Shown here: positions 2,892-57,748 of the stretch, one piece after another
How positions within the stretch are numbered: the first letter of the stretch is position 1
Layout of the letters: each line of letters begins with the position of its first letter
Assembly (NCBI RefSeq): GCF_900141855.1
Contig: NZ_FQYU01000001.1
Coordinates: 655,402 to 719,401, forward strand
Reading direction: 5' to 3'
Source: Pseudozobellia thermophila
Lineage (GTDB): Bacteria > Bacteroidota > Bacteroidia > Flavobacteriales > Flavobacteriaceae
Length of the DNA: 64,000 bases
Position numbers and translations under genes: made by a program
Notes under the pieces: model-generated
Seen by the model: the letters and a program-made list of their open reading frames with translations, nothing else
Databases searched by the model: none
What the model was told of the DNA's origin: nothing

Positions 2892-2931
2892 GTTGTAGTT
2901 TGCGGTAAATATAGAAAAGAACGAGGTATTC

Positions 2932-3645: not shown

Positions 3646-3873
3646 AAAGCCCTGTTACTTTCGTTTTCGGTCATTCAATATACGAACAAAACCGGAATGG
3701 TGTACATGGTCTTAACCTGGGGATGGTACCAGGGCACCTTAGGCCAAAACCGACCCCATAGTTGGTTCCGTACTTTCCCTTTCCGGGGGAGGGATAGGAT
3801 GGCTATTGAAAATGCACGCTTTTATCGATGAACGGCATATTGATGGAATGGCGGCTTGGATGGGGGGCAAGGT

Positions 3874-3891
3874 ACCGACCCATGGGTCGGT
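3874..3891. repeat. 18-bp perfect palindrome at the ogt stop
   Basis: ACCGACCCATGGGTCGGT is fully self-complementary with no spacer. It abuts the TAA of the minus-strand ogt gene. No T-run follows in either direction, so it is not a standard intrinsic terminator. It could be a cruciform, a protein site or a 3'-end stabilising hairpin. Confidence 0.45.
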
Positions 3892-4370
3892 TAATTTTCA
3901 AAAAGCGATTGTTGTTTTATGGGATTTTCGTGCTCGAGAAGCCATTTTTTTCGGTGCAGTCCGCCGGCATAACCCGTTAAGGAACCGTCACTTCCAATAA
4001 CGCGGTGGCAGGGCACCACGATCCACAAGGGGTTTTTGCCATTGGCCGAGGCGACCGCCCGGATGGCTTTGGGGTCTCCTAGCGATTTGGACAGGTCGAG
4101 GTAGGTTATCGTTTTTCCGTAGGGTATTTGGGCGAGGGCCTGCCATACCCGTTTTTGAAATTCGGTGCCCTGTGGATTGGTTTTCAGCGAAAAGGACGAT
4201 CGTTCTCCCGCAAAGTATTCCTTGAGTTGGCGGGCGGGTTCTTGCAAGCTTTTCGGTATTTGGTGCGAAGGCATGTCGGTATGGTCAAGAACCCTGATCG
4301 ACGATACGCCTTCCGAATCGCCGCGAAGTTCGGCAAGGCCCAAAGGGGTTTTAAGAAAGGCTACCTCCAT
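3891..4370 (-). CDS. ogt: Methylated-DNA--protein-cysteine methyltransferase
   Basis: This suicide repair enzyme transfers the methyl group from O6-methylguanine to its own cysteine. The active-site motif VVPCHRVIG is present with Cys121, preceded by the helix-turn-helix recognition region (FQKRVWQALAQIPYGKT, residues 71-87) and followed by GYAGGLHRKKWLLEHE. The length of 159 residues matches the small Ogt class with no Ada regulatory domain. It sits 3 bases downstream of the CNNM gene on the same strand, so the two are probably co-transcribed. Confidence 0.93.
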   Translation of the reverse strand: MEVAFLKTPLGLAELRGDSEGVSSIRVLDHTDMPSHQIPKSLQEPARQLKEYFAGERSSFSLKTNPQGTEFQKRVWQALAQIPYGKTITYLDLSKSLGDPKAIRAVASANGKNPLWIVVPCHRVIGSDGSLTGYAGGLHRKKWLLEHENPIKQQSLFEN

Positions 4371-4373
4371 GGG

Positions 4374-40746: not shown

Positions 40747-41319
40747 ATGTTCCAGTTAGGAAAAACCATAGTATCTGAAGAAATCATCGAAAACGATTTT
40801 GTCTGTAACCTGAATGCCTGCAAGGGCGCCTGCTGTGTTGACGGCAATGCCGGGGCCCCGGTCGAAGACGACGAAACCACCATTTTGGCCGATATTTACG
40901 AAACGGTGAAGCCCTTTCTTAGGCCCGAGGGCATAGCGGCCATCGAGGAACAGGGAACATACATTAAAGGGGAGGACGGCGAGTGGGAAACCCCTTTGGT
41001 CAACGGCAGTGAGTGTGCCTACGTGACCTTCTCCAAAAACGGGACCGCCAAGTGCGCCATAGAGGAGGCCTATAACCAAGGGGCCATTAATTGGAAAAAA
41101 CCGGTCTCTTGCCACCTGTATCCGGTCAGGGTACGCGAGTATACGCAACTTACGGCCGTAAACTACCATAGGTGGGAAATTTGCGATGCAGCCTGTTCGC
41201 TGGGGCAAGAATTGCAGGTGCCTATCTACAAATTTGTAAAGGAGGCCCTGATCCGAAAATTTGGATTGGACTGGTACGAACAGCTGGAACAGGTGGCGAA
41301 GGAGCACCTTAGGCAGTAG
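40747..41319 (+). CDS. DUF3109 cysteine-rich protein
   Basis: A 190-residue protein with a conserved cysteine layout suggesting a metal centre: CNLNACKGACCVDGNAGAP near residue 20, then single Cys at GSECAYV and AKCAIEE, SCHLYPVRV, and ICDAACSLGQ. DUF3109 proteins relate to the YkgJ family of cysteine clusters; function unknown, possibly an iron-sulfur or zinc protein. The stop overlaps the convergent kinase gene by 11 bases. Confidence 0.85.
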   Translation: MFQLGKTIVSEEIIENDFVCNLNACKGACCVDGNAGAPVEDDETTILADIYETVKPFLRPEGIAAIEEQGTYIKGEDGEWETPLVNGSECAYVTFSKNGTAKCAIEEAYNQGAINWKKPVSCHLYPVRVREYTQLTAVNYHRWEICDAACSLGQELQVPIYKFVKEALIRKFGLDWYEQLEQVAKEHLRQ

Positions 41320-43252
41320 GGATGTGCAAAATTACCTGGGTGCCCGCAGGCCGGTTTGCGGCATCGTATAGATCGACGATCTCGACGTCAAAGGAGTTTA
41401 AGTAATCCTTTGAGAAGTTGGCCAAGCGTTCCTTGGTAATCTCTATACCGACCGATTTGCGTTTTAAAACCTTGTTCTGCTTTATCTTTTCGGCGGCCTT
41501 TCGACCAATACCGTTATCGGTGATGGAAATGTCGATAAAGTCTTTGACCTTCTTCGTTATGTGAACCTCTATTTTTTTATCCCCGATTTTTGACGAGAGT
41601 CCGTGCCACAGGGCATTTTCGAGAAACGGTTGCAGGATCAACGACGGTATCCTGACGGTATGGGGGTCGATGTTCTTGTCGACATGTACCTTAAATTCTA
41701 TTTCGTTGGAAAACCGGATGTTCTCGATATTCATGTAAAGTTCCACGGTTTCCAGTTCTTCGGCCAAGGGAATTTCGCGTATGGACGAGGATTCGAGTAT
41801 TTTTCGGACCAATTTTGAAAATTTGTTCAGGTAGTGTACCGCGTTCTTTTGTTCGTTGTTGATGATATACAGCTTGATGGAGTTTAAGGAATTGAACAGA
41901 AAGTGCGGGTTCATCTGGCTGCGCAGCATGCTTTGTTCAAGGGTCAGCAACTTCTTGTCGTTCTTCAATTGGTATTGGCGGTAGAGAATGTAAAAAATAC
42001 CGGCCAATAGGGCTATGGCAATACCGGAAACCAGCAGCCGGGTATTGTTCTTTCGCAGTTGCTGGTTGATGCTCGATACCCTGGCCTCGTTATCCTTTTC
42101 GATAATCGAATTATAGACATAGCGCACGTTTTGGTCGTTCTTGATCTGTGATTCAACGTCGAGGGAGGTTTTGTGGTATTTTAGGGCCTGTTCGTAATTT
42201 CCTTCGGCGGCCGCAAGGTCCGATAAGAAGGAATAGGCTTCTGCCCTGGTTCGCATCAGGCCGTATTTGCGGGCCAATTCAAGTCCGCTCAACAGGCTCT
42301 CTTCGGCTTCGTCGTACCTTTTCAGGTCGGTCAGGGCCCATCCCAAGGTCAGATGCACCGAGGCGATAAGGGCGTGTTCCCCCAATTTCTTGGCCCGGGC
42401 CAATGCATCGCCCAACATAAAGACGGCCATCTTGGCTTTTCCGAGGTGCACATAAACATGGGCAATACCGTTTTGACAGAGAATTTCGCCCCGCTCGTTC
42501 TTGAGTTCTTGGTTGTAGCGCAGGGCACAATTGTAACTCTCAAGGGCTTCTTCCAATCTTCCTTGGGCCTCCAGGCACTCGCCAATGTACTGGTTGTTCT
42601 CGGCCAAACCCAGTTTGTTGTTCAGGACCTCTTCCAATTTTATGGCCTTGTTGAACTGCTCGATGGCCAGGTCGTATTGCCCCAAGACCCTATAGATGTG
42701 CCCGATGTTGCTTACCGATGCGTTGATGGCCCTTTTGATGCCCATGTCGGGATGGCTCACGGTTTGGGCCCGTTCAAGGGCCTCATAGGTATGGTCGAGC
42801 GCCGCTGTTATGGCATTTATCCTTCTGTAAAGTATGCCGAGCATGTTAAGGGTATAGATTTCGAGCTCGATATTGTCGGTGTTCCTGGCTATTGCCAAGG
42901 CTTCCTTGTGCTTTTCCAACGATTCGTTGAACTGCGATAAAAAGCGAAAACGCCTGCCCAGTTCGTTCAAGGCGTATATTTGGCCGCTGTGGTAATTGTT
43001 CAGTTGGGCTATTTTGGCAAAATAGGCCATTTTGATGGTGTCTGAACTGTGTTTGGCCAGGGCCGTATGTATTTGGTCGTACGATTTAGGCGCCGACTCG
43101 ATAAGGCTGTCGACCGATTTTCGGAACTGTTCTTGTTCCCCTTGGGCGAAGGAAAGCTGAAGGAGCAGGAAAAAAAAAATGGGCACAAGGTATACGTGGC
43201 GTGATATACGCGTAGGGAAACAAGGGAAAGGATATGTAATTTGGGACTGCAT
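41309..43252 (-). CDS. TPR-containing LytS-type sensor histidine kinase
   Basis: A 647-residue membrane kinase. Export signal within the first 35 residues (VYLVPIFFFLLLQLSFAQ), then several tetratricopeptide repeats to about residue 385 (such as SNIGHIYRVLGQYDLAIEQF). Transmembrane helix LLVSGIAIALLAGIFYILY near 405, then the His_kinase domain with the phospho-acceptor motif RSQMNPHFLFNSLNS, and an ATPase domain with SITDNGIGRKAAEK. It pairs with the LytTR regulator gene 6 bases upstream. Confidence 0.92.
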   Translation of the reverse strand: MQSQITYPFPCFPTRISRHVYLVPIFFFLLLQLSFAQGEQEQFRKSVDSLIESAPKSYDQIHTALAKHSSDTIKMAYFAKIAQLNNYHSGQIYALNELGRRFRFLSQFNESLEKHKEALAIARNTDNIELEIYTLNMLGILYRRINAITAALDHTYEALERAQTVSHPDMGIKRAINASVSNIGHIYRVLGQYDLAIEQFNKAIKLEEVLNNKLGLAENNQYIGECLEAQGRLEEALESYNCALRYNQELKNERGEILCQNGIAHVYVHLGKAKMAVFMLGDALARAKKLGEHALIASVHLTLGWALTDLKRYDEAEESLLSGLELARKYGLMRTRAEAYSFLSDLAAAEGNYEQALKYHKTSLDVESQIKNDQNVRYVYNSIIEKDNEARVSSINQQLRKNNTRLLVSGIAIALLAGIFYILYRQYQLKNDKKLLTLEQSMLRSQMNPHFLFNSLNSIKLYIINNEQKNAVHYLNKFSKLVRKILESSSIREIPLAEELETVELYMNIENIRFSNEIEFKVHVDKNIDPHTVRIPSLILQPFLENALWHGLSSKIGDKKIEVHITKKVKDFIDISITDNGIGRKAAEKIKQNKVLKRKSVGIEITKERLANFSKDYLNSFDVEIVDLYDAANRPAGTQVILHIPTA

Positions 43253-43258
43253 TAACTG

Positions 43259-43993
43259 TTAGAGCATATCCAAAAAATCGGATTTCTTTTGACGGGATAC
43301 GGGTATTTTGTGGTTCGACTCCAAAATTACGTATCCGTCCGTTTTTAAAAATTCCTTTATTTTGTTCAAATTGATAATATACGAATTGTGAATTCTGAAG
43401 AACGAACTATCGGGCAAGAGTTCGTTGACTTCCTTTAGTTTTTTGGTAAGAACGATTTTGTGTCCGTCGCTTAAGAACACCGTACTGTAATTGCCATCGG
43501 ATTCGGCATAGAGGATATCGTCACTATTGAGAAAGACCAATTTTCCGTCGGTGTTCAAGGTGATTTTTTTGTGCTTGGGGTTGGCATTAAAGCTCAGCAA
43601 AATTTTCTCCAGACGTTCGGCGGTATAGTTTCGGGCGTTGAATTTCCTGATTTTTACAATGGTTTCCCGCAAGTCGTCAGTGTCTATCGGCTTGAGCAGG
43701 TAATCGATGGCCTCGTTCTTTAAAGCCTTGATGGCGTACTGGTTATAGGCCGTGGTGATTACCACGGGAAAGTTTTTGTTCGTCAATTTCTGGATGAACT
43801 GAAACCCGTCCATGGTCGGCATCTCGATATCCAAAAAAAGACAATCGGGCGTGTTCTTCTCCAAATAGTCGAGCGCTTCGAACGGGTCCGTAAAGGAGGC
43901 GTTTACATTTATCTCATCGCTGAAGTTAGTCAGCTCCCAAGTAAGGCTCTGCAAGGCCTTGATTTCGTCGTCTACGATTACTGCATCTAACAT
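43259..43993 (-). CDS. LytTR family response regulator
   Basis: A 244-residue regulator: receiver domain residues 1-120 with Asp55 in CLFLDIEMPTMDGF and Lys in YLLKPIDTDDL; LytTR DNA-binding domain at about 140-240 (KLVFLNSDDILYAESDGNYS, FFRIHNSYIINLNKI). The upstream partner of the TPR kinase, forming a LytS/LytTR pair. Its promoter region (43994-44374) is AT-rich. Target genes unknown; possibly the neighbouring secreted proteins. Confidence 0.93.
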   Translation of the reverse strand: MLDAVIVDDEIKALQSLTWELTNFSDEINVNASFTDPFEALDYLEKNTPDCLFLDIEMPTMDGFQFIQKLTNKNFPVVITTAYNQYAIKALKNEAIDYLLKPIDTDDLRETIVKIRKFNARNYTAERLEKILLSFNANPKHKKITLNTDGKLVFLNSDDILYAESDGNYSTVFLSDGHKIVLTKKLKEVNELLPDSSFFRIHNSYIINLNKIKEFLKTDGYVILESNHKIPVSRQKKSDFLDML

Positions 43994-45637: not shown

Positions 45638-45737
45638 GCATTTATTCGAGCTTCTATGGTCATGTGCAAGTGGATATGGTTGAACCTAAATAGGTTTTGA
45701 GGTGATTCGAGCTTTTATACCCCTACGAATAGAACAG

Positions 45738-48700
45738 ATGATCAGGGCGATATGCTTGACAATTCCTTGTTTTCTATATTCCCAATCACAAATAACCTTT
45801 AGGCAATTGTCGGGCCACCAAGGCCTTTCTCAAAACAGTGCTGTTTCTGTGACGCAAGACAGCATAGGCTATCTGTGGATTGCCACACAGGACGGGCTCA
45901 ACAAATATGACGGTCGGCAGTTCACGGTATTTCCCTTCACATTTGAAGACAACACCAAACCCAATTATAGCAAGTTGGGCAAGGTTTATAAAGACAGGGA
46001 AGGGGGGTTGTGGATAATACCTTCCGACAGAATACTTCGCAAGTTCGACTATGCCGAACAAACCTTCGGGCCCGTCGGGGAATTGAAGGATGCCAGTGTC
46101 GTATTTCAAGACCGTTCCCTGGATATATGGGCCGGAACTTTTTCGCATGGCCTGTTCAAATTGGAGCCTCGGACCGGAAAATTTGTTCAAGTGGCCCCAT
46201 TCGATGGGGGCCAGACCCCGATCTACAGTATTTCACAGCAAGACCCGGAACATATTCTACTGGCTACGAACGGCCGTTTGATAGCCTTCGATAAAAGGAG
46301 CGGCCGTTCCGAAGCGCTGGTTTTCAAAGACCGCTACGGCAAGGAAATTCGTGCCAATTTCAGCGATATTGAAACGGACCCGTCGGGCCGCCAATGGATA
46401 GGTAGTTTTGGCGATGGCCTTTTTTTTAGGAAAAAAAACGACCCGACCTTGCACCGTATATCGGAGCTGCCCTTCACAGACCCCCTTCCGGTCAATTTGA
46501 ACATCGAAGACCTCTATCTCGACAGTAGCGATAGATTGTGGGTCGCTACCTATGGTCGCGGTCTGTTCTTGATCGATTTTAGGTCATCGACCATCGATCG
46601 TTTTGTTGCCGAAAAACACAACCCCAAGGCCCTTCACTACAACGATATTTTATGCATCTATGAAGACGATTCGGGTATCATTTGGTTCGGTACCGATGGG
46701 GCGGGCCTGAGCTATTACGACGAATACCTGGAAAAATTCAACTCCTTCACCAACTATCAGACCCCCGAAAAAATAAGTATAGATGTGGTCCGTTCGATAG
46801 CGGTCGATTCCAATGCCACCGTATGGGTGGGTACATCGGGCAAGGGGCTCACCCAATACGAACCGGCATCCAACAGCTGGAGAACCCATACGGTCGACTA
46901 TTCAAGCGAAAACACACTCAGTTCCAATAGGATCATGAGCCTTTTTGTCGATCGGGAAAACGAACTCTGGATCGGCACCCAAGGCGGAGGCCTCGATATA
47001 AGGGAGGGGCAGGGCGGCTTTGTTTCCTACAACAACTTGTCAAAGCCTTCGTTATCGGCAAATACGGTCTGGTGTATATATCAGGATGAACAAGGGCGCA
47101 TTTGGTTGGGAACCCGGGAAGAAGGACTTATTCAATTCGACAAACAAAAAGGGGAAATAAAAAAATACAAGCACAACCCGTTGGACGAAAACAGCATTTC
47201 CAGTAATAATATCCGGGTAATAACTTCCGATGGAAAGGGCAATCTGTGGATCGGTACGGAGACCGATGGCCTTGTTTTTTTCGATACTTCCCAAGAACGC
47301 TTCAAATCCTTTAAATCGAGCGGTAGGGAAGGTTTTTTGACGAGCAACCGTATTAAGTCGCTCTACTACGATGGATCGGAAACCTTATGGGTGGGTACCA
47401 ATGGGGGCGGACTTAATTCCCTTGATATTGAAAAAAACCAATTTAAGTCCTTTACGGTTGAAAACGGTCTTGCGAACAATGTAATTTATGCCATACTGCC
47501 AGACAAAAGCGGTAACCTATGGTTGAGCTCCAATAAAGGGATTACCAAATTCGGCCTACCGAAATCCGATTCGTTACCACCACATATTACCAACTATACG
47601 AACTACGATGGTCTGGCAACCGAATTTAATACCGGAGCGTATTATCGGGGAATCGACGGCACATTATATTTTGGGGGGCTCGATGGCTTCTATTGGTTCC
47701 GGCCCGAAAATTTGGAAGAAAACACCACCCTGCCCAAAACGACGATTACAGGTTTTGAGGTTTATGGCAAGGCCAAGTCGACCGTCGGAACCCTCGACCT
47801 GCCCCATGACCAGAATACGGTATCGGTTACTTTTTCAAGCCTTCAATATTCATTGCCCGAAAAAAATGAATACCGATATCGCTTATTGAATTATGACGAG
47901 GCTTGGGTCGATGCGGGCAACAAAAATTTTGCACGGTACACGCGCTTGCCCCCCGGCACCTATGAGTTTCAGGTAAAGTCTAGCAACTATGACGGTGTTT
48001 GGAACGATGTACCGGCCTCCCTTTCCTTTACCATCAAACCTCCTTGGTACCTGACAACATTTGCCAAATTCGGTTATTTCGTCACCTTTGTTTTCGTGGT
48101 CCTGGCTTTGTACAAATACCTCAAATGGAGATGGCGAATTAAAATGAGCCTACAAGTGAAGGAAGAGGAAACGCTGCGTTTAAAAAAACTGAACCAACTC
48201 AAATCAAAACTGTACACCGATATATCCCATGAATTCAGAACACCCTTGACCTTGATCGCCGGACCGATCGATGCCAAGTTGGGCGAAGGGCGACTGTCGG
48301 ATGAGGAGTATTCCAATTTTTCGATGATCAAACGAAACACCAACCGCATGATAGCCTTGGTCGACCAACTCTTGCATTTGGCCAAGCTTGAAAAAGGGGG
48401 CTTCGAACTGAAAATGAACAAGGGCAATATCGAACTCTTCTTAAAAATGCTGACCGCTTCCTTCGAATATCACGCCCAGCGGAAACAGATAAAATATGAA
48501 GTCGACATTAAGGACATCGGTGAGGCGTTTTACGACGAGGACGCCCTTGACAAAATAGTGGGAAACCTTTTGTCAAATGCCTTCAAACACGGAATTCAGG
48601 GGGGGCTTTGTCGTTTTGAGGCTAGCAAGGAGGGCGATCATTTAAAGATCCATGTAAAAAACGAAATAGCCCCCGGCAGCGATATCGATGTAGAAAAACT

Positions 48701-49730
48701 GTTTACCCGGTTTTATCAAAAGGATGAATTCATGGAGGGTGCAGGGGTCGGACTCTCCCTGGTCCGTGAGACGGTAAAGCTCTATAAGGGGAAACTCGAA
48801 GGCGTTCGGGAAGGGGATAATTTCATTTCGTTTAGGGTCTTATTGCCGGTATTCAAGACTACGGACAAACCGGATAAGGCCCGCGGCCTATCGACGGACG
48901 AACCGGAAACGGATGAGGTCGGCTATCGGCAAACAAAGGATGGGGCTGATACCAACAACGAAGGAACGGACGACAGGCCTATTCTTTTGATCGTTGAAGA
49001 CCACCCCGAAATACGGGAGTTTCTTAAATCGGTATGGAAGGAAAAATATGAGGTTTATGAGGCGGCCGATGGGCAGGAAGGCATCGATATGGCCCTGAGG
49101 ATCGTTCCCGACCTTATTGTCTCTGATGTCCGGATGCCCAAAATTAACGGTATAGAATTGTGCAAACGGCTAAAGGCCGATGAGCGGACCAGCCATATAC
49201 CCATCATCGTTTTGACCGCGGGCACGGGTGAGGATTACGAGATGAGGGGCTTGCAGTCCGGTGCAGACGACTTCGTGGAGAAGCCCTTTAAGATCCGTGT
49301 CCTTAGCAAAAGGGTCGATAACCTTATTGAAGGGAGAAGGGCGTTGCGCACCAAGTACAGCCAAGAACTAAAACTACAGGCCAGCGATATGGCCATTACC
49401 TCTACCGACGAACTGTTTCTCAACAAGGTACAGCAGCTTCTCGACGATAAGTTGGGCGACCCGCAATTCAACGCCAAGGTCTTTAGTGCCCATCTGGGCA
49501 TGAGCCGCATGCAGTTGCACCGCAAACTTCAAGCCTATACGGGACTCAGTACAACGGAGTTTATACGCTCCCAGCGCTTAAAATTGGCGACACATATTTT
49601 AAGGACATCGGACATCACCGTTAATGAGGTGGCCTATGCGGTGGGCTTTAACACCCCTTCCTATTTTATCAAGTGTTTTAAGGAAACGTACAAAACGACC
49701 CCTGCGGAGTATCTAAAGGCACATTCTTAG
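45738..49730 (+). CDS. Hybrid two-component system (HTCS) sensor/regulator
   Basis: About 1330 residues combining sensor and regulator. Signal peptide MIRAICLTIPCFLYSQSQ; then two seven-bladed regulator propellers with repeated I.FGT..GL, LWIGT.GGGL, WVGT strands to about residue 650; a Y_Y_Y domain (EYRYRLLNYDEAW); a transmembrane helix near 775-795; a HisKA domain with His831 in DISHEFRTPL; an ATPase domain (NLLSNAFKHG, GAGVGLSLV); a receiver with Asp1130 in IVSDVRMPK; and a C-terminal AraC HTH (VNEVAYAVGFNTPSYFIKCF). HTCS proteins usually control polysaccharide utilisation genes, yet no SusC/SusD or glycosidase is next to it. A GTG at 45702 would add 12 residues. Confidence 0.95.
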   Translation: MIRAICLTIPCFLYSQSQITFRQLSGHQGLSQNSAVSVTQDSIGYLWIATQDGLNKYDGRQFTVFPFTFEDNTKPNYSKLGKVYKDREGGLWIIPSDRILRKFDYAEQTFGPVGELKDASVVFQDRSLDIWAGTFSHGLFKLEPRTGKFVQVAPFDGGQTPIYSISQQDPEHILLATNGRLIAFDKRSGRSEALVFKDRYGKEIRANFSDIETDPSGRQWIGSFGDGLFFRKKNDPTLHRISELPFTDPLPVNLNIEDLYLDSSDRLWVATYGRGLFLIDFRSSTIDRFVAEKHNPKALHYNDILCIYEDDSGIIWFGTDGAGLSYYDEYLEKFNSFTNYQTPEKISIDVVRSIAVDSNATVWVGTSGKGLTQYEPASNSWRTHTVDYSSENTLSSNRIMSLFVDRENELWIGTQGGGLDIREGQGGFVSYNNLSKPSLSANTVWCIYQDEQGRIWLGTREEGLIQFDKQKGEIKKYKHNPLDENSISSNNIRVITSDGKGNLWIGTETDGLVFFDTSQERFKSFKSSGREGFLTSNRIKSLYYDGSETLWVGTNGGGLNSLDIEKNQFKSFTVENGLANNVIYAILPDKSGNLWLSSNKGITKFGLPKSDSLPPHITNYTNYDGLATEFNTGAYYRGIDGTLYFGGLDGFYWFRPENLEENTTLPKTTITGFEVYGKAKSTVGTLDLPHDQNTVSVTFSSLQYSLPEKNEYRYRLLNYDEAWVDAGNKNFARYTRLPPGTYEFQVKSSNYDGVWNDVPASLSFTIKPPWYLTTFAKFGYFVTFVFVVLALYKYLKWRWRIKMSLQVKEEETLRLKKLNQLKSKLYTDISHEFRTPLTLIAGPIDAKLGEGRLSDEEYSNFSMIKRNTNRMIALVDQLLHLAKLEKGGFELKMNKGNIELFLKMLTASFEYHAQRKQIKYEVDIKDIGEAFYDEDALDKIVGNLLSNAFKHGIQGGLCRFEASKEGDHLKIHVKNEIAPGSDIDVEKLFTRFYQKDEFMEGAGVGLSLVRETVKLYKGKLEGVREGDNFISFRVLLPVFKTTDKPDKARGLSTDEPETDEVGYRQTKDGADTNNEGTDDRPILLIVEDHPEIREFLKSVWKEKYEVYEAADGQEGIDMALRIVPDLIVSDVRMPKINGIELCKRLKADERTSHIPIIVLTAGTGEDYEMRGLQSGADDFVEKPFKIRVLSKRVDNLIEGRRALRTKYSQELKLQASDMAITSTDELFLNKVQQLLDDKLGDPQFNAKVFSAHLGMSRMQLHRKLQAYTGLSTTEFIRSQRLKLATHILRTSDITVNEVAYAVGFNTPSYFIKCFKETYKTTPAEYLKAHS

Positions 49731-51231: not shown

Positions 51232-51870
51232 ATGAGAACTATGAACAGTATATTGTTGATTACCCTAATAGGGGCCTTTTTGGCCTGCTCAGGGCCTACC
51301 GATATGGAGGAACTGGAGCTTGAATCTACGGCTTTAAGTTATCGAATAAGTCAAACGGAACCATATTTAAATGGTGTAGAGTTGTTCAAACAGGCAGCCA
51401 TGGGCGAGCAGATTAAGCTCAGGAAGCAGATATCCGAATTACAGGTGGCCATCAAGCGCGGTAATCGGAACCTTTTGCCCCAGTTGGAAAGTGCCCAAAA
51501 AAAGGACAATATGATCGATTTGTACAAAGAAGACCTGACCATGATCAAAATGCCAAAAGTACCTTATCCACCAAGACCACCGCGTGGTTGTTTTCAAGAT
51601 CCCAATGCGAATTGTGGTATACCCAAGATCAATTTGGACGGCTACAGTGGTATTCAGGTTACCGAAGACATGGGCGAGGTAAGCATTCAAATATTAGATC
51701 AAAAAAACCGGGTTGTGGGTAAATCCGGACATGTCTACCGTACCAAGGGAGGAGTGTCCATAATACCTATTGAATCGGGCTTAAAGGGCAATGGCGTTAT
51801 GCGCATAAGGCCAAATAGCAGGTTTTTTGATAAAAGTGTATATTTAGATATACCGGTATATAAAGATTGA
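51232..51870 (+). CDS. Lipoprotein before the CHAT gene
   Basis: A 212-residue lipoprotein: MNSILLITLIGAFLACS with lipobox LAC, a helical region (residues 30-105) rich in Lys/Glu/Gln (LRKQISELQVAIKRGNRNLL), a proline-rich stretch PYPPRPPRGC and a C-terminal beta domain (ILDQKNRVVGKSGHVYRTKG). Unknown. It ends 60 bases before the CHAT start, with a stable hairpin between. Confidence 0.65.
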   Translation: MRTMNSILLITLIGAFLACSGPTDMEELELESTALSYRISQTEPYLNGVELFKQAAMGEQIKLRKQISELQVAIKRGNRNLLPQLESAQKKDNMIDLYKEDLTMIKMPKVPYPPRPPRGCFQDPNANCGIPKINLDGYSGIQVTEDMGEVSIQILDQKNRVVGKSGHVYRTKGGVSIIPIESGLKGNGVMRIRPNSRFFDKSVYLDIPVYKD

Positions 51871-51895
51871 ATATAACCCTCGAAACTTATTTTGA

Positions 51896-51921
51896 GTCCT
51901 GCAGACCGTGGTTTGCAGGAC
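51896..51921 (+). promoter_or_regulatory. Stable hairpin before the CHAT gene
   Basis: GTCCTGCAGACC pairs with GGTTTGCAGGAC (one G-T wobble), leaving a CGTG tetraloop once the innermost pair opens. It ends 8 bases before the ATG at 51930 and is followed by TTTCGTGC. No long T-run, so more likely a translational control hairpin or weak attenuator than a terminator. Confidence 0.5.
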
Positions 51922-51929
51922 TTTCGTGC

Positions 51930-54767
51930 ATGAAAAAGTTAAAAAATATAGCGCTTGGTTTTCTATTCGTTCAAACGGGTTTTTTCTATGCACAAGACAT
52001 AGGGAGCTCCTTTGAAAAGGCCATGGACTATCACTATTCCAATAAGGACAGTGCGTATTTTTATTATGAAAAGACCATTGCCCTGGCCAGGGAACGGAAC
52101 GATATCGAAAGCGAGTTGCTGGCCTTTAGCTACCTGCTCAACGCCAATAGTAATTTTTATGATTTAAGCAACTACGGTCGAAATATAAGTAGGGCCGATA
52201 GCCTGGTCAAGCGAACACCGCGGATCGACACCCTGTACATGGGCCAGTATTTTAAAGACAACCTGCTATTTGAAAAAGGGTCTTATTACTACAAATTAAA
52301 GGACTATGGCTCCGCCCAAAACTACTTTTTTGAGCATTATAAGAAACTAAGCGCTATTCCTGAAACGGATCTGACCAGTGCCGAAATCGATATGATGTCG
52401 GCCATTTTTAGCTTTCTCGGCCTAACCTATAGGCATACGGGCAAGTACGAGCAGGCCGAATTTTACTTTAAAAAGGACATCGACTGGGTAAATAATTACA
52501 GGGATAGCATAGTCGACTGGCAATCGGTGGTGTACAATACCAAAAAGCTGTTGTCCCAGGTCTACGAGGCCCAGGATAAACCGGAGCGTGCGAACCAATT
52601 GCTCGAAGAGGCCCTCGAATTTTACAGGCTTAGGATCACGAATCCTAGGCAGAAGAACAACTTTCTGTCTACCTATATTCTCCTCGCCAAAAATCGCGTA
52701 CAGCAGGGCAGGTTCGACGAGGCCCTCGACATATTGGTTAAAAATAAATCCTTTGTTACGGGCAGCAATCCCTTTCTCAAGGAAGTCAATATCATATTCG
52801 GTGATGCCTATCTGGGCAAGAAGCAATACAAGAAGGCTTTGTCCTTTTATAATATGGCCTTGGGCGAGTATATGGAGTATCGCCAACACCGGCCCCACCA
52901 AGACGTGGCGGACGTGTATGGCAAGATTGCCGAACTGTATCTGAAACAGGGCGATTATACCCAAGGCCTTGAAGCCTTGTCCAAGGCCTTTAACAATGCC
53001 GGAAGCGACATCGATATCAAGGGCTACGATACCAACCCGTCGCCGGAACGCGTTTTTTCGAAGACGCAGTTGTTAGGACTTTTAGATATTAAGCTGAGGT
53101 TCTTTAATGAAACCTATGAAAGGGACCACGATGGGAGTTCTTTGGATATGGCCCTTCAGACGAGCCGCGATATCCTAAATACTTTCGACTTGTTGAAAAC
53201 CGAGTTTGACAGCAAGCTCGACAAGCAGTTCTTGGCCGAAAAGGCCTATCCCATATTTGAACGAATACTCCAAATAAGCCACCTTGCCTATGAGAAAGAG
53301 GGGTCCCGGACTATTTTGGAACTGGCCTTGAACATCAGCGAAAGGAGCAAGGATTTTATTCTTTTGGAGGCCCTGCGAAGTGTCCAGGCCACAAAATACG
53401 GCGACGTACCCGACAAGGTGCTCGAAAGGGAGGCCCGTCTTAGGGCCGAAATAACCCAATTGGAAAAACAAATGTTCGATGCCACCGAAAACGAAGACGT
53501 TTTTTCCGATAACTTATTCAAGGCAAAACAAGACTATTACAATTTTCTCGACTCGGTCGGGCATGCCTACCCCAGGTACTACAACCTCAAGTACAAAAAC
53601 GAGGCCCTTTCGCTGACCGACATACGCCGCACGTTGTGCGAAGAAAATACGGCCCTAATATCCTATACCGTGGCCACCGACGGGCTCTATGCCATAATTT
53701 TGGGCGATAAGGGTGAAAATTTTATTAAGATGCCCTTTTCCGAATCGGACAAAAACGAGATCCGTGAGTTTTACCGGCTGATTTCCAAACCTTCGCTCCA
53801 GGTAAGTAACGACAAATTGCACCTGCTGGGCGAACGTCTTTACGACAAGGTTTTAAAAATGCCGCTCGAAGGCATAACGGCCGAAAACTTGATCGTTGTC
53901 CGCGATGGGGAACTGCACTACCTCCCCTTTGACCTTTTGCGGCACAACGAAAAATATCTTTTGGAAGATCGGAGTATCAGTTATGGCAATTCGTTCGCCT
54001 CCTTGATGGAGCTCCATGCGGTAAAAAGGAAAAATGTGAACAAGATCATAGCCTTTGCGCCCGGTTTCGGCGATGACAAGGAGGCAAATGGCAGCCGTCA
54101 GTTCGGCAAGCTTTTGTACAACGACGATGAGGTAAGGGGCATCGCTTCGTTCTTTGATGTTGAGCTCCTCTTTGATGGCAGCGCCACCTTGCGGAACTTT
54201 AGGTCCAGGGCCTCACAATTCGGTATTGTCCATTTGGCGACCCATGCTTCCGCGAATGATGCCTTTCCCGATTACTCCTACCTGGCCTTCAGTCAGGAAA
54301 AAGATAGTGCCCAGGGCAATGTCCTGTATATCAAAGACCTTTATAACACTTCGTTAACGGCCAATATGGTGACCTTGAGCGCCTGTCAGACCGGTATAGG
54401 GAAACTTCAAAAAGGACAGGGCATGTTAAGCCTCTCCAAGGGGTTTTATTATGCAGGGGCCAAGTCGTTGGTCAACACCCTTTGGAAAATAAACGATAAG
54501 AGCAGCGTAAAACTGATGCGGTATTTTTATGAGGGGCTCAGTGAGGGCAAATCGAAAAGCGCCGCCTTGCGCCAGGCCAAGCTGAAATACCTGGAGACCA
54601 CCGACGATAGGTTGATGCGCCACCCTTACTATTGGGCGGCCTTTGCCGTTTCGGGCGATGTCTCCCCCGTGACCACCACGGTCAATTGGTGGCGGATAGG
54701 CGCGCTGCTTTTGCTTATCGTCGGCTTTTTTACCTATTTTAAGGGAAGCCGTTCGAACCGACCATAG
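51930..54767 (+). CDS. Secreted, membrane-anchored TPR-CHAT peptidase
   Basis: About 945 residues. Signal peptide LKNIALGFLFVQTGFFYAQ; tetratricopeptide-like helices to about residue 400; long helical linker; CHAT (caspase-fold) domain from about 620 to 915 with His772 in VHLATHASAND and Cys819 in LSACQTGIG, the expected catalytic dyad. A C-terminal hydrophobic helix (WWRIGALLLLIVGFFTYF) followed by a basic tail KGSRSNRP would anchor it to the inner membrane with the peptidase facing the periplasm. The start at 51930 is chosen over 51867 because only the former begins a signal peptide. Its neighbour on the other strand is an anti-sigma-like protein, so regulated cleavage is a reasonable hypothesis. 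Confidence 0.9.
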   Translation: MKKLKNIALGFLFVQTGFFYAQDIGSSFEKAMDYHYSNKDSAYFYYEKTIALARERNDIESELLAFSYLLNANSNFYDLSNYGRNISRADSLVKRTPRIDTLYMGQYFKDNLLFEKGSYYYKLKDYGSAQNYFFEHYKKLSAIPETDLTSAEIDMMSAIFSFLGLTYRHTGKYEQAEFYFKKDIDWVNNYRDSIVDWQSVVYNTKKLLSQVYEAQDKPERANQLLEEALEFYRLRITNPRQKNNFLSTYILLAKNRVQQGRFDEALDILVKNKSFVTGSNPFLKEVNIIFGDAYLGKKQYKKALSFYNMALGEYMEYRQHRPHQDVADVYGKIAELYLKQGDYTQGLEALSKAFNNAGSDIDIKGYDTNPSPERVFSKTQLLGLLDIKLRFFNETYERDHDGSSLDMALQTSRDILNTFDLLKTEFDSKLDKQFLAEKAYPIFERILQISHLAYEKEGSRTILELALNISERSKDFILLEALRSVQATKYGDVPDKVLEREARLRAEITQLEKQMFDATENEDVFSDNLFKAKQDYYNFLDSVGHAYPRYYNLKYKNEALSLTDIRRTLCEENTALISYTVATDGLYAIILGDKGENFIKMPFSESDKNEIREFYRLISKPSLQVSNDKLHLLGERLYDKVLKMPLEGITAENLIVVRDGELHYLPFDLLRHNEKYLLEDRSISYGNSFASLMELHAVKRKNVNKIIAFAPGFGDDKEANGSRQFGKLLYNDDEVRGIASFFDVELLFDGSATLRNFRSRASQFGIVHLATHASANDAFPDYSYLAFSQEKDSAQGNVLYIKDLYNTSLTANMVTLSACQTGIGKLQKGQGMLSLSKGFYYAGAKSLVNTLWKINDKSSVKLMRYFYEGLSEGKSKSAALRQAKLKYLETTDDRLMRHPYYWAAFAVSGDVSPVTTTVNWWRIGALLLLIVGFFTYFKGSRSNRP

Positions 54768-54771
54768 TTCT

Positions 54772-55500
54772 TTAATCCAGTTCTTCGAGTAATTTTCGGG
54801 CCTCCTTGGCCTTGAACCCGTTATGGTCCGCCACGTTTTTAAGCAGGCTTGTGCTTTTGTCCACCTGGTCGAGTCTCAGGTAACTGAGGGCCAGGTACCA
54901 CTCGGCGCGGTTCTTGAGTTCACCATCGGACCGTATATAGGTTTCCAATAGGGCGACCGCATCGCTATGCTTGTTCAGTTGCATGAGGGCAATGGCTTCG
55001 TAGAACTTGATGTAGTCGTCGTTGCTCTTGTCTTGAAGGTCTTTGAACAGCGATAGGGCCAAGGCATAGTCGCCCTCTTCGTAAGCGGTGAAAGCCTTGG
55101 TCTTCAGGTCTTCGAGCTGTTCGCCCCGCTCGATGGGATGGACCACGTTTTCATACGGGCTAAAATGGGTGTTGTAGAGGGCCTCGGTGTCGATGCCGGT
55201 CGAATTGAAGAAAAGAAGCCAGGCGCTTATACCCACTAAAAATACAATGGAGGCCGCCATCAACCAAGGGCGTAGGCGGACGACCTTTGAGGGCGCTGCC
55301 CGCTCGGCATCCCTTTTTTCGCGGAACATCTCCCGGAGTTCCTGACGTTCGTTTGTTTTGAGCGCCCCTTGCAGCTCTTTTTCGAAATCGAGTTCGGCGG
55401 CAAAATCGGGGTCGCTTTGGTACAACCGTTCCAACTCCTTCAATCCCGCTTCGTCGAGTGTGTTTTCAAAATAGCGGTTAATAAGTTCTTCTTTATCCAT
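54772..55500 (-). CDS. Anti-sigma-factor-like membrane protein with TPR domain
   Basis: A 242-residue protein: charged N-terminal region (residues 1-75), transmembrane helix PWLMAASIVFLVGISAWLLFF (79-98), then TPR repeats outside (AFTAYEEGDYALALSLFKDL, YIKFYEAIALMQLNKHSDAV, WYLALSYLRLDQVDKSTSLL). It overlaps the sigma-factor gene by 8 bases. Order and topology fit an anti-sigma: the N-terminal part would hold sigma in the cytoplasm and the TPR part would sense from the periplasm. No zinc-finger (ZAS) motif is seen. Stops 4 bases from the CHAT gene stop. Confidence 0.72.
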   Translation of the reverse strand: MDKEELINRYFENTLDEAGLKELERLYQSDPDFAAELDFEKELQGALKTNERQELREMFREKRDAERAAPSKVVRLRPWLMAASIVFLVGISAWLLFFNSTGIDTEALYNTHFSPYENVVHPIERGEQLEDLKTKAFTAYEEGDYALALSLFKDLQDKSNDDYIKFYEAIALMQLNKHSDAVALLETYIRSDGELKNRAEWYLALSYLRLDQVDKSTSLLKNVADHNGFKAKEARKLLEELD

Positions 55501-56047
55501 CTTGCCGTTTAATTAAGTCTTTTAAAGATTTGAGGCATCTCGATTTTTGGCTTTTTACGACATTTTTGTTTTCGTAACCTTGTACGGTCATGATCTCTTC
55601 GATCTTTAGCCCTTTTAGGTAGAAAAGCTCAAGGATTTCACGACACTTCTCGCCCAGCTTTTTAAAATTGGACACTAGCCGTTTTTGGTACTCGTCGGGC
55701 CCAGGGTCGTGGTATACATCCTCGATCACGGCCTTTTCCTTCTGGTCGAAAATATAGGCTTCATCGGTAATTATTTCCTTGGTGTCCCTGAACCTTTTGA
55801 AGAGCATGAACTTGCCAATGCTGAACAAGTAGGTTTTTACACTGCTCTTTAAGTGGTCCAGTTTTCCGGCCTGGGCATTTTCATAAAGTGCGATAAGGGC
55901 ATCTTGAAAGATGTCTTCGAGGTCGACCCCGGTTTTTTGGTACCGATGTGCAAACTTGAAAAATTCCGACCTATAATCGTCATAAACACTTTTTAAGGCG
56001 TCCCTGTCCCTGTTCTTCAACTGAGAAATAAGTTGCTCGTCTTTCAT
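55493..56047 (-). CDS. ECF-type RNA polymerase sigma-70 factor
   Basis: A 184-residue ECF sigma: region 2 at about residues 20-85 (FKFAHRYQKTGVDLEDIFQD, LIALYENAQ) and region 4 at about 125-175 (KLGEKCREILELFYLKGLKI, EEIMTVQGYENKNVVKSQ). Regions 3 is absent as expected. First gene of the minus-strand pair with the anti-sigma; it should direct transcription of an unknown regulon, perhaps including the flanking lipoproteins. Confidence 0.9.
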   Translation of the reverse strand: MKDEQLISQLKNRDRDALKSVYDDYRSEFFKFAHRYQKTGVDLEDIFQDALIALYENAQAGKLDHLKSSVKTYLFSIGKFMLFKRFRDTKEIITDEAYIFDQKEKAVIEDVYHDPGPDEYQKRLVSNFKKLGEKCREILELFYLKGLKIEEIMTVQGYENKNVVKSQKSRCLKSLKDLIKRQDG

Positions 56048-56328
56048 TAGTGCCGGAAGGTTAATAAGGTAAACATATATAAATATAAATTTTTTTAGGC
56101 CTTGGCTGTTGACCTTTTCATATTTCTGGTATTAATGGATGTACGACCTTTTAAAACATAGGATTATAAAAACAAAAAATGTAATGTATATCCCACTTTT
56201 CCCGATAAGGCATACAACCCAAGGTCGCAAGAAACGGAAAAGGCCGTGATGGCAATATTAGCGAATTGAAGAATACTTCCCCCACCGATATAATAAACCT
56301 TTATAAACAAACCTTAAATTTTAAAGTT

Positions 56329-56682
56329 ATGCGTACTAGTAGAAAAACACCGATTCTTTCTCTTGCATGTGTGGTTGCAACCGCAGTGCTAATGCTCGCA
56401 TGTAACAAAGGCGACGACGGTAACCCCTTAGGTTCCGAGGGAGCCTGTTATGGAGACAATTGGGCCGAGTTTTATATGGATGAGCTACAGGCCTTTTCCG
56501 ATGCTACAGTGGCGTATTCGGCCGATCCGACAGCTGAAAACTGTAGTAGGTACACCGCTGCCGGAAACGATTATTTGGATGCCCTGGAGACAGTGTACCA
56601 ATGTGTGCCCACGGCAAGTAGGGCGCAAATCGAACAAGCGATCAAGGAGGCAAAGGAAGGCCTCGAAGAAACGTGCCAATAA
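56329..56682 (+). CDS. Small lipoprotein, cysteine-containing
   Basis: About 117 residues starting MRTSRKTPIL (the frame is open 21 codons upstream). Hydrophobic segment LSLACVVATAVL and lipobox MLAC, then a helical domain with Cys at GACYGDNW, ENCSRYT, YQCVPT and ETCQ. Unknown. Lies across from the sigma gene, divergent. Confidence 0.7.
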   Translation: MRTSRKTPILSLACVVATAVLMLACNKGDDGNPLGSEGACYGDNWAEFYMDELQAFSDATVAYSADPTAENCSRYTAAGNDYLDALETVYQCVPTASRAQIEQAIKEAKEGLEETCQ

Positions 56683-56731
56683 GTTCCGCTACCTGCGAAA
56701 AAAATCGTTTTGTTCACCATAAAAACAGATT

Positions 56732-57352
56732 ATGAAAGACATAAAAAAATTAGTGGCCGGCTTACTCGTGCTAAGTTCCATGTCGGCTTGTATGGGCGAG
56801 ACAAAGGAAAAACTGAAAAAGGCCAAGGAAGGGGTGTCGAACTCGGCCACCCTGGTCAATCAGGCCAGAAAGTTCGAAGACGATGTCGAAAAACTGAAGA
56901 ATGCCGAGCCTTTGACCGCTACACAACTGAAAGAATGGCTTCCCGAAAAAATAGACGGACTTAATCGAACGGGTTTTAAGACCGGTCAGGCGGGCATGTA
57001 CAATGTCAAGTCGATAGAAGGTACCTTTAAGGATGATGGGGGAAAGAAAAAATTGCGGGTCAACGTAGTGGACGGGGCCGGGCCCACGGGCAGTATCATG
57101 GCGGCCAGCTACAGCGTGGCTAATAATATGGAGATGGAGGAAGAGGATGAGAACAAACATAAAAAAAACATTGAGGTCGACGGAATCAAGGCCCGGCAGA
57201 CCTATTGGAAAAAGACCAACAAAACCATGTTGTCGTTTACCTATAACGGACGGTTTTTGGTTACCGTAAACGCGACCGGCTTAGACCCCGAGGAAACTTG
57301 GGAACTGGTCGATCGGTTGAATTTAGACGACTTGGCCGATATGGCGGATTGA
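56732..57352 (+). CDS. Lipoprotein of unknown function
   Basis: A 206-residue lipoprotein: KLVAGLLVLSSMSAC with lipobox MSAC; a coiled helical stretch (residues 24-62, KEKLKKAKEGVSNSATLV); and a C-terminal domain (GQAGMYNVKSIEGTFKDDGG, MLSFTYNGRFLVTVNATG). Unknown. Starts 49 bases after the previous gene on the same strand. Confidence 0.72.
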   Translation: MKDIKKLVAGLLVLSSMSACMGETKEKLKKAKEGVSNSATLVNQARKFEDDVEKLKNAEPLTATQLKEWLPEKIDGLNRTGFKTGQAGMYNVKSIEGTFKDDGGKKKLRVNVVDGAGPTGSIMAASYSVANNMEMEEEDENKHKKNIEVDGIKARQTYWKKTNKTMLSFTYNGRFLVTVNATGLDPEETWELVDRLNLDDLADMAD

Positions 57353-57385
57353 CATACTTGAATAATCATTTTAAACTTTAGAACA

Positions 57386-57748
57386 ATGGAAACATCAAAA
57401 GCGAATTTAGAAGCGAACAAAGGCTTGGCAGTCAATGAAGAAGCCAAAAGAATAGCGATTATCGGGTATATAACCGTCATCGGACTGGTCATTGCCTTTG
57501 TGATGAACAACGAAAAGAAACTCGATTTTGCCAAATACCACATACGGCAATCCATAGGGCTTTGTGTTACGGGCCTTGTTTTGGGAGTTATCGGTATCGT
57601 ACCCATTATTGGTTGGTTGATCAATATCGTAGGCATCTTTGTATTGCTCTATATGTGGATCGTGGCCTTAATGAACGCCATCAACGGTAAGGAAAAACCG
57701 GCACCTTTTCTGGGTACCAAGTACCAAGAATGGTTCAAGGGGATATAG
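57386..57748 (+). CDS. DUF4870-like small membrane protein
   Basis: A 120-residue protein with three hydrophobic segments (IAIIGYITVIGLVIAFVM, SIGLCVTGLVLGVIGIVPII, IVGIFVLLYMWIVALMNAI), and motifs NNEKKLDFAKYHIRQSIGL and FLGTKYQEW typical of DUF4870 (Tic20-like) proteins. Function unknown. Two terminators follow. Confidence 0.75.
   Translation: METSKANLEANKGLAVNEEAKRIAIIGYITVIGLVIAFVMNNEKKLDFAKYHIRQSIGLCVTGLVLGVIGIVPIIGWLINIVGIFVLLYMWIVALMNAINGKEKPAPFLGTKYQEWFKGI

What the first reader, a model, noticed from the sequence alone, without database searches (positions are those of the whole stretch)
51930..56047. TPR-CHAT peptidase tail to tail with an anti-sigma-like TPR protein and ECF sigma factor
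A secreted CHAT peptidase (catalytic His772 and Cys819 present, signal peptide, C-terminal membrane anchor) lies 4 bases from an anti-sigma-like protein with a cytoplasmic head, one transmembrane helix and a periplasmic TPR domain, which overlaps its ECF sigma gene. Both the peptidase active site and the TPR domain should face the periplasm. In type III-E CRISPR a TPR-CHAT protease (Csx29) cleaves a protein that restrains an ECF sigma factor; here a comparable set appears without CRISPR, moved to the envelope. Control of sigma by CHAT cleavage is a hypothesis.
Basis: partly seen in the sequence, partly recalled or inferred. Interest (0 to 1): 0.75.

Follow-up and report, generated by a model that had tools for sequence, protein, structure and literature searches.

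The report
Caspase-like switch for envelope sigma factor
Next to a gene switch that answers to the cell envelope, this bacterium carries a caspase-like protein cutter that very probably cuts the switch's brake, and similar pairs recur in other Bacteroidota with the cutter's pocket and the brake's likely cut site tending to change together.

Summary
In detail: a TPR-CHAT protease with a signal-peptide-like start and a C-terminal anchor (51930-54767 +) lies 4 bases tail to tail from an anti-sigma-like membrane TPR protein (54772-55500 -), which overlaps its ECF sigma gene (55493-56047 -) by 8 bases. It is not chance. The genome has two CHATs; both sit in this arrangement beside paralogous sigma/anti-sigma pairs. 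Of 100 CHAT neighbourhoods read in the family (of 106 matches), 82 hold the anti-sigma, in several gene orders; of 40 loci from other families, chosen from an anti-sigma-driven search, 30 hold a CHAT. CHAT pairs with its own sigma/anti-sigma within genomes (0 of 2000 partner shuffles reach the observed correlation). The anti-sigma's periplasmic linker carries a conserved [R/M]-[G/S] site; its first residue covaries best, of about 87,000 cross-protein column pairs, with CHAT Glu734 on helix alpha1, where clan CD peptidases hold a P1-reading acid. Much of that signal is one clade. Best reading: CHAT is a dedicated site-1 protease that cuts the anti-sigma at Arg125-Gly126 and frees sigma. Nothing was tested at the bench. 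Closest known: Csx29/Csx30/CASP-sigma, and DdvA, a Myxococcus anti-sigma containing a CHAT domain. New variant of a known kind.

The parts
51232..51870 (+). lipoprotein-like secreted protein, 212 aa, same strand just upstream of the CHAT gene; no Pfam family
   Evidence: ORF; best Pfam hit 0.16; relatives upstream of CHAT in Zobellia and Euzebyella loci; in some other class I loci the place is taken by an S8 subtilase
51930..54767 (+). TPR-CHAT peptidase, 945 aa, N-terminal signal-peptide-like segment, C-terminal membrane anchor
54129..54131 (+). CHAT Glu734 on helix alpha1 (731-738), proposed S1 acid
   Evidence: covariation; helix; codon
54237..54239 (+). CHAT Ala770, two before catalytic His, covaries with anti-sigma residue 125
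   Evidence: codon
54243..54245 (+). catalytic His772
54378..54380 (+). CHAT Ser817, two before catalytic Cys, covaries with anti-sigma residue 125
54384..54386 (+). catalytic Cys819
54495..54497 (+). CHAT Asp856 after strand 846-850 (L5-like region), covaries with anti-sigma residue 125
54687..54755 (+). C-terminal transmembrane helix 920-942 of CHAT
   Evidence: hydropathy
54772..55500 (-). anti-sigma-like membrane protein, 242 aa: cytoplasmic head, one TM (78-100), periplasmic TPR domain (132-241)
55108..55164 (-). periplasmic linker 113-131 (FSPYENVVHPIERGEQLED) between TM and TPR
   Evidence: loop in AF2 model; 113-127 is the best conserved of five segments among 13 sequences
55123..55128 (-). 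Arg125-Gly126, proposed CHAT cleavage site (P1-P1')
55493..56047 (-). ECF sigma factor, 184 aa

Best explanation
The three proteins form an envelope-signalling switch. The cytoplasmic head of the anti-sigma holds the ECF sigma (inferred from gene order and topology). The CHAT protease, tethered to the same membrane with its active site outside, senses an unknown cue, perhaps through its TPR array or the secreted protein encoded upstream (guess). It then cuts the anti-sigma in the periplasmic linker after Arg125 (site-1 cleavage, inferred from covariation). The stump is expected to be finished by an RseP-type site-2 protease (two M50 matches exist in the genome) and a cytosolic protease, freeing sigma (inferred from RseA-type pathways). 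Paralogous switches may be kept apart partly by P1 specificity: Arg read by Glu734 in most, Met read by a hydrophobic or small residue in the operon class. Shown here: gene association, pairing within genomes, preserved catalytic dyad, topology models, covariation. Not shown: cleavage, sigma inhibition, trigger, regulon.
For: Both CHATs of the genome in the same set. 76 of 87 anti-sigma matches of 38 bits or more in 149 family genomes lie within 12 kb of a CHAT. 82 of 100 CHAT neighbourhoods read (of 106) hold the anti-sigma: convergent 27, same strand sigma/anti-sigma/CHAT 20, divergent close 13, divergent with genes between 18, other 4; none 18. Anti-sigma-driven sample outside the family: 30 of 40 with CHAT, 39 of 40 with ECF. 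Within-genome partner shuffles: CHAT/anti-sigma r 0.70, 0 of 2000. C-terminal hydrophobic segment in 79 of 82 CHATs with the set against 6 of 18 without. Residue 125 by CHAT 734 over 108 pairs: E with R 76, non-E with non-R 26, E with non-R 5, non-E with R 1; rank 1 of about 87,000 column pairs; 770, 856 and 817 rank 2, 3 and 5 (rank 4 is an unrelated pair, 137 with 898). Tree-aware: of 69 CHAT columns tested, 817, 856 and 734 are the top three for loss on the same branch as loss of R125. Control: no sigma column couples to these four sites as strongly (best summed z 12.5 against 31.1 for residue 125). The clan CD review (PMC4357240, section 17 read) puts S1 specificity on alpha1, L4 and L5.
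Against: No cleavage experiment. The Met class is one clade giving 20 of the 26 non-E/non-R pairs; without it the 734 pair drops to rank 11 of 89,300 (still the best of 380 CHAT columns for residue 125), and without both Met clades to rank 1380, z 2.4, fifth of 378. Strict same-branch coincidence for 734 is only 2 of 5 losses of E (P 0.009). Sigma-CHAT column pairs reach z 7.6 at column 898, and 3 of 180 sigma columns have one of the four sites as best partner against 5 of 234 anti-sigma columns, so z alone is not decisive. Exception: L106 (Arg at both places, 667-aa CHAT). 10 of 40 anti-sigma loci outside the family have no CHAT in the stretch fetched, and at least 4 of those keep an R-G or R-S site (L112, L124, L125, and L123 just outside the aligned column). 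In the family, 11 of 87 anti-sigma matches have no CHAT within 12 kb. Craspase orthologs cut at three different sites (PMC11106740, part 1 of 3 read), so a CHAT need not read P1 strictly.
Confidence: 0.72

Rival explanations
1. Pseudosubstrate brake in the other direction: the anti-sigma linker plugs the CHAT pocket and holds the protease silent, and the anti-sigma is not the real substrate; a signal separates them.
For: The same covariation would arise; gingipain's prodomain inserts an Arg into the S1 pocket in this way (PMC4357240 passages). Separase is held by securin and Craspase by an autoinhibited conformation (PMC9729208 passages).
Against: The next residue is G or S in 74 of 78 family pairs and the site lies in a loop of the model, as expected of a cut site; membrane anti-sigmas of this plan are usually removed by proteolysis (established for RseA). 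A pseudosubstrate that is cut later merges with the main model.
Confidence: 0.13
2. CHAT is only a target gene or effector of the sigma factor (for example a death or processing protease) and does not act on the anti-sigma.
For: Neighbours of several sets encode further secreted proteins: S8 subtilases upstream of CHAT (6 of 8 class I proteins scanned, six of the eight having been picked for length; 2 of 4 class III proteins), a retropepsin-like protein and a PKD/DUF7619/DUF7849 protein in the one class IV locus scanned.
Against: Does not explain why one linker residue of the anti-sigma covaries with four positions around the CHAT active site.
Confidence: 0.08
3. The covariation is lineage noise and the adjacency reflects a shared chromosomal neighbourhood.
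For: Most of the signal is one clade; background z-scores are high.
Against: Adjacency survives in several gene orders and in other families and a further class; the top columns lie in the regions that independent structural work names for P1 specificity.
Confidence: 0.07

Closest known systems
Type III-E CRISPR CASP/Craspase: Csx29 (TPR-CHAT), Csx30, CASP-sigma
   Same: TPR-CHAT protease next to a sigma inhibitor and an ECF sigma; in CASP, Csx29 cleavage of Csx30 is proposed to relieve CASP-sigma (PMC10028731, passages). Fold: Craspase/Csx29 chains head both lists for the model (VIA Z up to 32.6; Foldseek E down to 2.0e-18).
   Different: CASP is activated by target RNA through Cas7-11; here the protease has a signal-peptide-like start and an anchor, the presumed substrate is a membrane anti-sigma, and no Cas7-11-like gene or repeat array was seen at the locus. 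CASP sites are M|K, L|D and A|S; here R|G, R|S or M|S is proposed. In the profile alignment Csx29 has a gap where our alpha1 acid lies, but a weaker pairwise alignment pairs it with a Glu.
DdvA of Myxococcus xanthus (transmembrane anti-sigma of the ECF sigma DdvS; PDB 8rot, 8rw5)
   Same: Membrane anti-sigma of an ECF sigma with a CHAT domain: the chain is named 'CHAT domain-containing protein' (E 9.1e-7 to our CHAT profile); fold match VIA Z 23.8, rmsd 12.4, 605 residues, Foldseek 1.5e-14 with low TM-score. DdvS becomes active when DdvA is inactivated, signal then unknown (PMC4374960, two passages).
   Different: In DdvA the CHAT domain is in the anti-sigma itself; here it is a separate protease beside a small TPR anti-sigma. 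Whether DdvA's CHAT keeps a dyad was not tested, and the structure paper was not seen.
Regulated intramembrane proteolysis of anti-sigmas (DegS/RseP on RseA; RsiW, RsiV)
   Same: Single-pass anti-sigma with a periplasmic domain; expected site-1 then site-2 cleavage.
   Different: Site-1 protease would be a caspase/separase-like cysteine peptidase, not DegS, PrsW or signal peptidase (PrsW and signal peptidase recalled; DegS, RseP, ClpXP and RsiW appear in the passages; RsiV in a listing).
Separase
   Same: Helical array plus clan CD domain, Arg at P1 (table in passage); fold matches Z 23-27.
   Different: Eukaryotic, cuts cohesin; no sigma factor.

Membership tests
CHAT peptidases (PF12770, clan CD) | match to the CHAT profile over its length | tested here: met
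   3.5e-61, positions 3-289 of 289
CHAT peptidases (PF12770, clan CD) | His/Cys dyad after strands beta3 and beta4 | tested here: met
   His772 after strand 766-769, Cys819 after 813-816; both in 100 of 100 CHATs aligned
CHAT peptidases (PF12770, clan CD) | proteolytic activity | not testable with these tools
   no assay
ECF sigma factors | sigma regions 2 and 4, ECF profile | tested here: met
   TIGR02937 1.2e-18 over positions 1-163 of 165; Sigma70_r2 1e-8; region 4 weak, 7.4e-4, under its cut-off
membrane anti-sigma of an ECF sigma | gene next to its sigma, N-terminal helical head, single TM | tested here: met
   overlap of 8 bases; head helices within 3-67, TM-length helix 78-100
membrane anti-sigma of an ECF sigma | recognisable anti-sigma domain family | tested here: inconclusive
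   only NF052375 at 0.032, far under its cut-off, and DUF3379 at 0.0035
membrane anti-sigma of an ECF sigma | binds and inhibits the sigma | not testable with these tools
   no assay, no complex model
Type III-E CASP/Craspase system | Cas7-11 (gRAMP) and CRISPR array at the locus | tested here: not met
   no direct repeats of 22 bases or more within 120 bases of each other in 40000-64000; the only ORF over 1000 aa in the window is a hybrid two-component regulator; Cas7-11 was not searched genome-wide; a cas1 match lies about 708 kb away
Type III-E CASP/Craspase system | TPR-CHAT without signal peptide or membrane anchor (recalled) | tested here: not met
   hydropathy calls a signal-peptide-like start and/or C-terminal segment in nearly all set members; window protein has both
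Regulated intramembrane proteolysis | site-2 protease (M50) present in the genome | tested here: met
   two M50 matches
Regulated intramembrane proteolysis | ordered cleavage of the anti-sigma | not testable with these tools
   needs experiment
known anti-phage defence systems (PADLOC) | match to a defence-protein model | tested here: not met
   four window proteins scanned; only weak hits at 0.0047 and 0.0073

The most novel reading that the evidence does not exclude
In Bacteroidota, separase-like CHAT proteases serve as dedicated site-1 proteases of ECF anti-sigmas, each enzyme matched to its own brake by a P1/S1 code (Arg with Glu on alpha1; Met with a hydrophobic or small residue; Lys or Gln with an Asp before the catalytic Cys), so that several caspase-sigma circuits run side by side in one envelope. 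Type III-E Craspase and DdvA would then be a CRISPR-borrowed and a fused version of an older envelope circuit; that last step is speculation.
Probability: 0.58. Interest if true: 0.88.

Novelty: new variant of a known kind. Interest (0 to 1): 0.8.

Why it matters
It gives a predicted substrate, cut site and pocket residue to a class of bacterial caspase/separase relatives (CHATs) that, to my knowledge, have few known roles outside CRISPR and defence, and a candidate site-1 protease for many ECF sigma systems of Bacteroidota. It would show that control of sigma factors by CHAT proteases is not a CRISPR peculiarity but a widespread envelope-signalling scheme, with a specificity code that can be tested by single-residue swaps.

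Tried and rejected
Second copy in the window: the 244-aa / 647-aa pair at 41309-43993 looked similar by size but is a LytTR response regulator and a TPR histidine kinase. Defence system: PADLOC gave only weak hits. Chance adjacency: rejected. Literature: 10 searches (one search was on metacaspase pockets); no title or abstract start in the listings describes a CHAT beside an ECF/anti-sigma pair in Bacteroidota, but several listings were cut (for example 10 of 569, 12 of 111 shown), only open-licence papers are held, and the ECF classification paper and a paper that I recalled by DOI as being on DdvS/DdvA were not held. No complex of CHAT with the anti-sigma could be modelled here. Coordinates of the AF2 models were not available, so Glu734 is placed by order of elements only. 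No function was found for the 212-aa protein. Csx29 at alpha1: the pairwise alignment and the profile alignment disagree.

Rows dropped; all 87 rows of 38 bits or more were taken; 4 weaker rows were added by eye and are not used in the counts. Six of 106 CHAT matches were not fetched as regions of their own (two in G061, one each in G050, G029, G047, and the minus-strand one of G014:C326, which lies on a fetched contig; by a quirk of my script L007 was then scored by that minus-strand CHAT and not by its plus-strand neighbour; neither has the set). Trees and pair counts used 78 of the 82 set loci (L047, L071, L083, L090 left out). The 40 outside-family loci were picked by me from the listing (itself cut): rows with in-frame stops, some partial or weak rows and all rows of family f24 were left out. 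Family f24 was judged by printed coordinates only: 19 of 39 listed anti-sigma rows have a listed CHAT within 12 kb, all 19 upstream on the same strand; the CHAT list was cut, so this is a lower bound.
Full report
Observation. The CHAT gene (945 aa from the ATG at 51930) ends 4 bases before the end of the convergent anti-sigma gene, which overlaps the sigma gene by 8 bases. Pfam gives CHAT at 3.5e-61 and TPRs; the sigma is a clear ECF; the middle protein is known by its TPRs, its TM and its place rather than by a named anti-sigma domain.

Own genome. A search of the 5.04-Mb genome found only two CHATs. The second, on another contig, is also tail to tail with an ECF (45% identical over 179 residues) and an anti-sigma (37% identical over its length). 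The genome has 30 sigma region 2 matches, and by coordinates only these two adjoin a CHAT. A cas1 match is far away; two M50 matches exist. No direct repeats of CRISPR kind lie in 40000-64000.

Family survey. In 149 genomes of the family, 67 hold 106 CHAT matches. The anti-sigma profile gave 87 matches of 38 bits or more, 76 within 12 kb of a CHAT and 11 not. I read 100 CHAT neighbourhoods; 82 hold the anti-sigma and 81 of those also an ECF, the missing one (L071) on a 3.3-kb contig (L062 and L083 overlap and share one pair). The arrangements are: convergent as here (27); sigma, anti-sigma and CHAT on one strand (20, the gap before CHAT between about -20 and 27 bases in 19 of them); divergent with 0.35-1.7 kb between sigma and CHAT (13); divergent with 3.2-5.2 kb between (18); other (4); none (18). 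Linkage kept through such changes of order speaks for function. By hydropathy, CHATs with the set nearly always have a C-terminal hydrophobic segment (79 of 82) against 6 of 18 without; several of the 18 are fragments or lie on short contigs or at contig ends.

Outside the family. A search driven only by the anti-sigma profile over 395 genomes of the phylum gave loci in other families; of 40 that I chose and fetched, 39 have an ECF and 30 a CHAT in the stretch. In a family of another class, 19 of 39 listed anti-sigma matches have a listed CHAT within 12 kb. Named relatives of the convergent set include Zobellia, Kriegella, Maribacter, Euzebyella and Aquimarina: 15 of the 21 loci hold CHAT, anti-sigma and ECF; the other 6, from more distant bacteria, do not within their flanks.

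Pairing. Trees of CHAT domain, anti-sigma and sigma over 78 loci correlate (CHAT/anti-sigma r 0.70, CHAT/sigma 0.69, sigma/anti-sigma 0.86). Shuffling partners within the 21 genomes that hold two or more sets never reached the observed values in 2000 trials for any of the three pairs. CHAT therefore follows its own sigma pair, paralog by paralog.

The linker. In the anti-sigma model the TM helix (78-100) is followed by a short helix, a loop (113-131) and then the TPR domain. Classes have their own conserved motifs in this loop: YxNvvxPIxRG, DPGLPTTMS, LPSLVxRG, ISLTVRG. Among 13 sequences (window and 12 close relatives), 113-127 is the best conserved of five segments (84% identity to the window against 35-64% elsewhere). 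At aligned residue 125 the family set has R 55, M 17, K 4, T 1, Q 1 of 78; the next residue is G or S in 74 of 78.

The pocket. Of 14 CHAT columns invariant in the R set, three residues are absent from the M set: 734, 824 and 856. Position 734 is Glu in 55 of 55 R-type pairs and Leu, Val or Ile in 17 of 17 M-type pairs; L016, an operon-arranged set whose CHAT falls outside the Met clade, has R with E. Adding the 30 outside pairs gives 108: E with R 76, non-E with non-R 26, E with non-R 5 (in three of these, L045, L104 and L129, an Arg lies within two residues, so the alignment may be off), non-E with R 1. The outside set adds three more M|S pairs with Leu or Ala at 734, and a separate clade (L121, L132, L140) with Ser or Ala at 734 and a Met in the linker next to or near the aligned column. 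Three class III members with K or Q at residue 125 have lost the Glu and carry an Asp two before the catalytic Cys.

Statistics. Mutual information with background correction over about 87,000 anti-sigma by CHAT column pairs ranks residue 125 with 734 first (z 8.3-8.4), with 770 second, with 856 third and with 817 fifth; fourth is 137 with 898 (z 7.8), for which I have no explanation. Without the 20 class II Met pairs the pair is rank 11 of 89,300 but 734 is still the best CHAT column for 125; without both Met clades it is rank 1380 (z 2.4), fifth of 378 columns. Counting losses on the CHAT tree, the best three of 69 CHAT columns for loss on the same branch as loss of R125 are 817 and 856 (3 of 5 losses, P 2e-4 each) and 734 (2 of 5, P 0.009). 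As a control, no sigma column couples to the four sites as strongly (best summed z 12.5; anti-sigma 125: 31.1; next anti-sigma column 17.1); but sigma reaches z 7.6 with CHAT column 898, and 3 of 180 sigma columns (5 of 234 anti-sigma columns) have one of the four sites as best partner. Relatedness inflates all of these numbers.

Why these positions matter. The AF2 model (pLDDT 83.8) has the clan CD order: beta1 706-710, alpha1 731-738, beta2 744-748, beta3 766-769 then His772, beta4 813-816 then Cys819. A review of clan CD (PMC4357240; passages, section 17) attributes S1 specificity to alpha1, L4 and L5, with RgpB Asp163 on alpha1 bridging the P1 Arg, and names TbMCA2 Asp95 (alpha1), Ser156 (L3) and Asp211 (L4; the catalytic residue is Cys213). 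Our 734 lies on alpha1, 817 is Cys minus 2 like Asp211, 770 is His minus 2, and 856 follows strand 846-850 near the conserved Trp852, as L5 would. That the catalytic His of TbMCA2 is His158 is recalled. Residues were placed by order of elements, not by measured distances.

Mechanism. The simplest account is that residue 125 is the P1 residue of a CHAT cut in the anti-sigma's periplasmic linker, and that the cut starts release of sigma. Upstream of CHAT, many convergent sets encode another secreted protein: a lipoprotein-like protein in the window, an S8 subtilase in 6 of 8 class I upstream proteins that I scanned (six of the eight picked for length), among them the paralog in this genome. Two of four class III proteins scanned are subtilases, and the one class IV locus scanned has a retropepsin-like protein. 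These may be upstream activators or targets; this is open.

Comparison. The logic matches Csx29/Csx30/CASP-sigma (PMC10028731 passages), but place and trigger differ. DdvA, found through the fold and profile searches, is a membrane anti-sigma that itself contains a CHAT domain; it is the nearest relative in plan. I know it from PDB titles and two passages. Craspase and separase are among the nearest folds.

Verdict. A real, widespread module with strong indirect evidence for direct recognition of the anti-sigma linker by the CHAT active site; a new variant of known protease-controlled sigma systems; untested at the bench.

Noticed in passing
window 51871-51929: An inverted repeat (GTCCTGCA / TGCAGGAC followed by TTTC) lies between the lipoprotein gene and the CHAT start; it could be a terminator or attenuator within the presumed operon.
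   Followed up: no
L041:12333-13727, L043, L037, L025, L034, L030: S8 subtilase genes directly upstream of CHAT in six class I sets, including the paralogous set of this genome.
   Followed up: partly
L085:4333-10829 (class IV): Between divergent sigma and CHAT lie secreted proteins (PKD/DUF7619/DUF7849, lipoprotein-like), and a retropepsin-like protein overlaps the CHAT end; similar gene orders are seen in L059, L067 and L087.
   Followed up: partly
window 56266-57748: A 138-aa lipoprotein, a 206-aa lipoprotein and a 120-aa membrane protein follow the set; one or more of them recur beside it in Zobellia, Maribacter, Euzebyella and Kriegella loci.
   Followed up: partly
anti-sigma residue 137 with CHAT residue 898: Fourth-ranked covarying pair (z 7.8), and column 898 also covaries with sigma columns; unexplained, perhaps a lineage marker.
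   Followed up: no
G014:C326 (L007) 2800-4732: Two CHAT matches lie tail to tail, 20 bases apart, on one short contig without a sigma pair in reach; possibly an assembly artefact.
   Followed up: no
L062/L083 and L044: L062/L083 hold two tandem operon-class CHATs behind one sigma/anti-sigma pair; L044 holds a short CHAT (394 aa) without the set.
   Followed up: no
window 45702-49730: Large hybrid two-component regulator (Reg_prop, Y_Y_Y, HisKA, receiver, AraC) upstream of the set; no link was tested.
   Followed up: no
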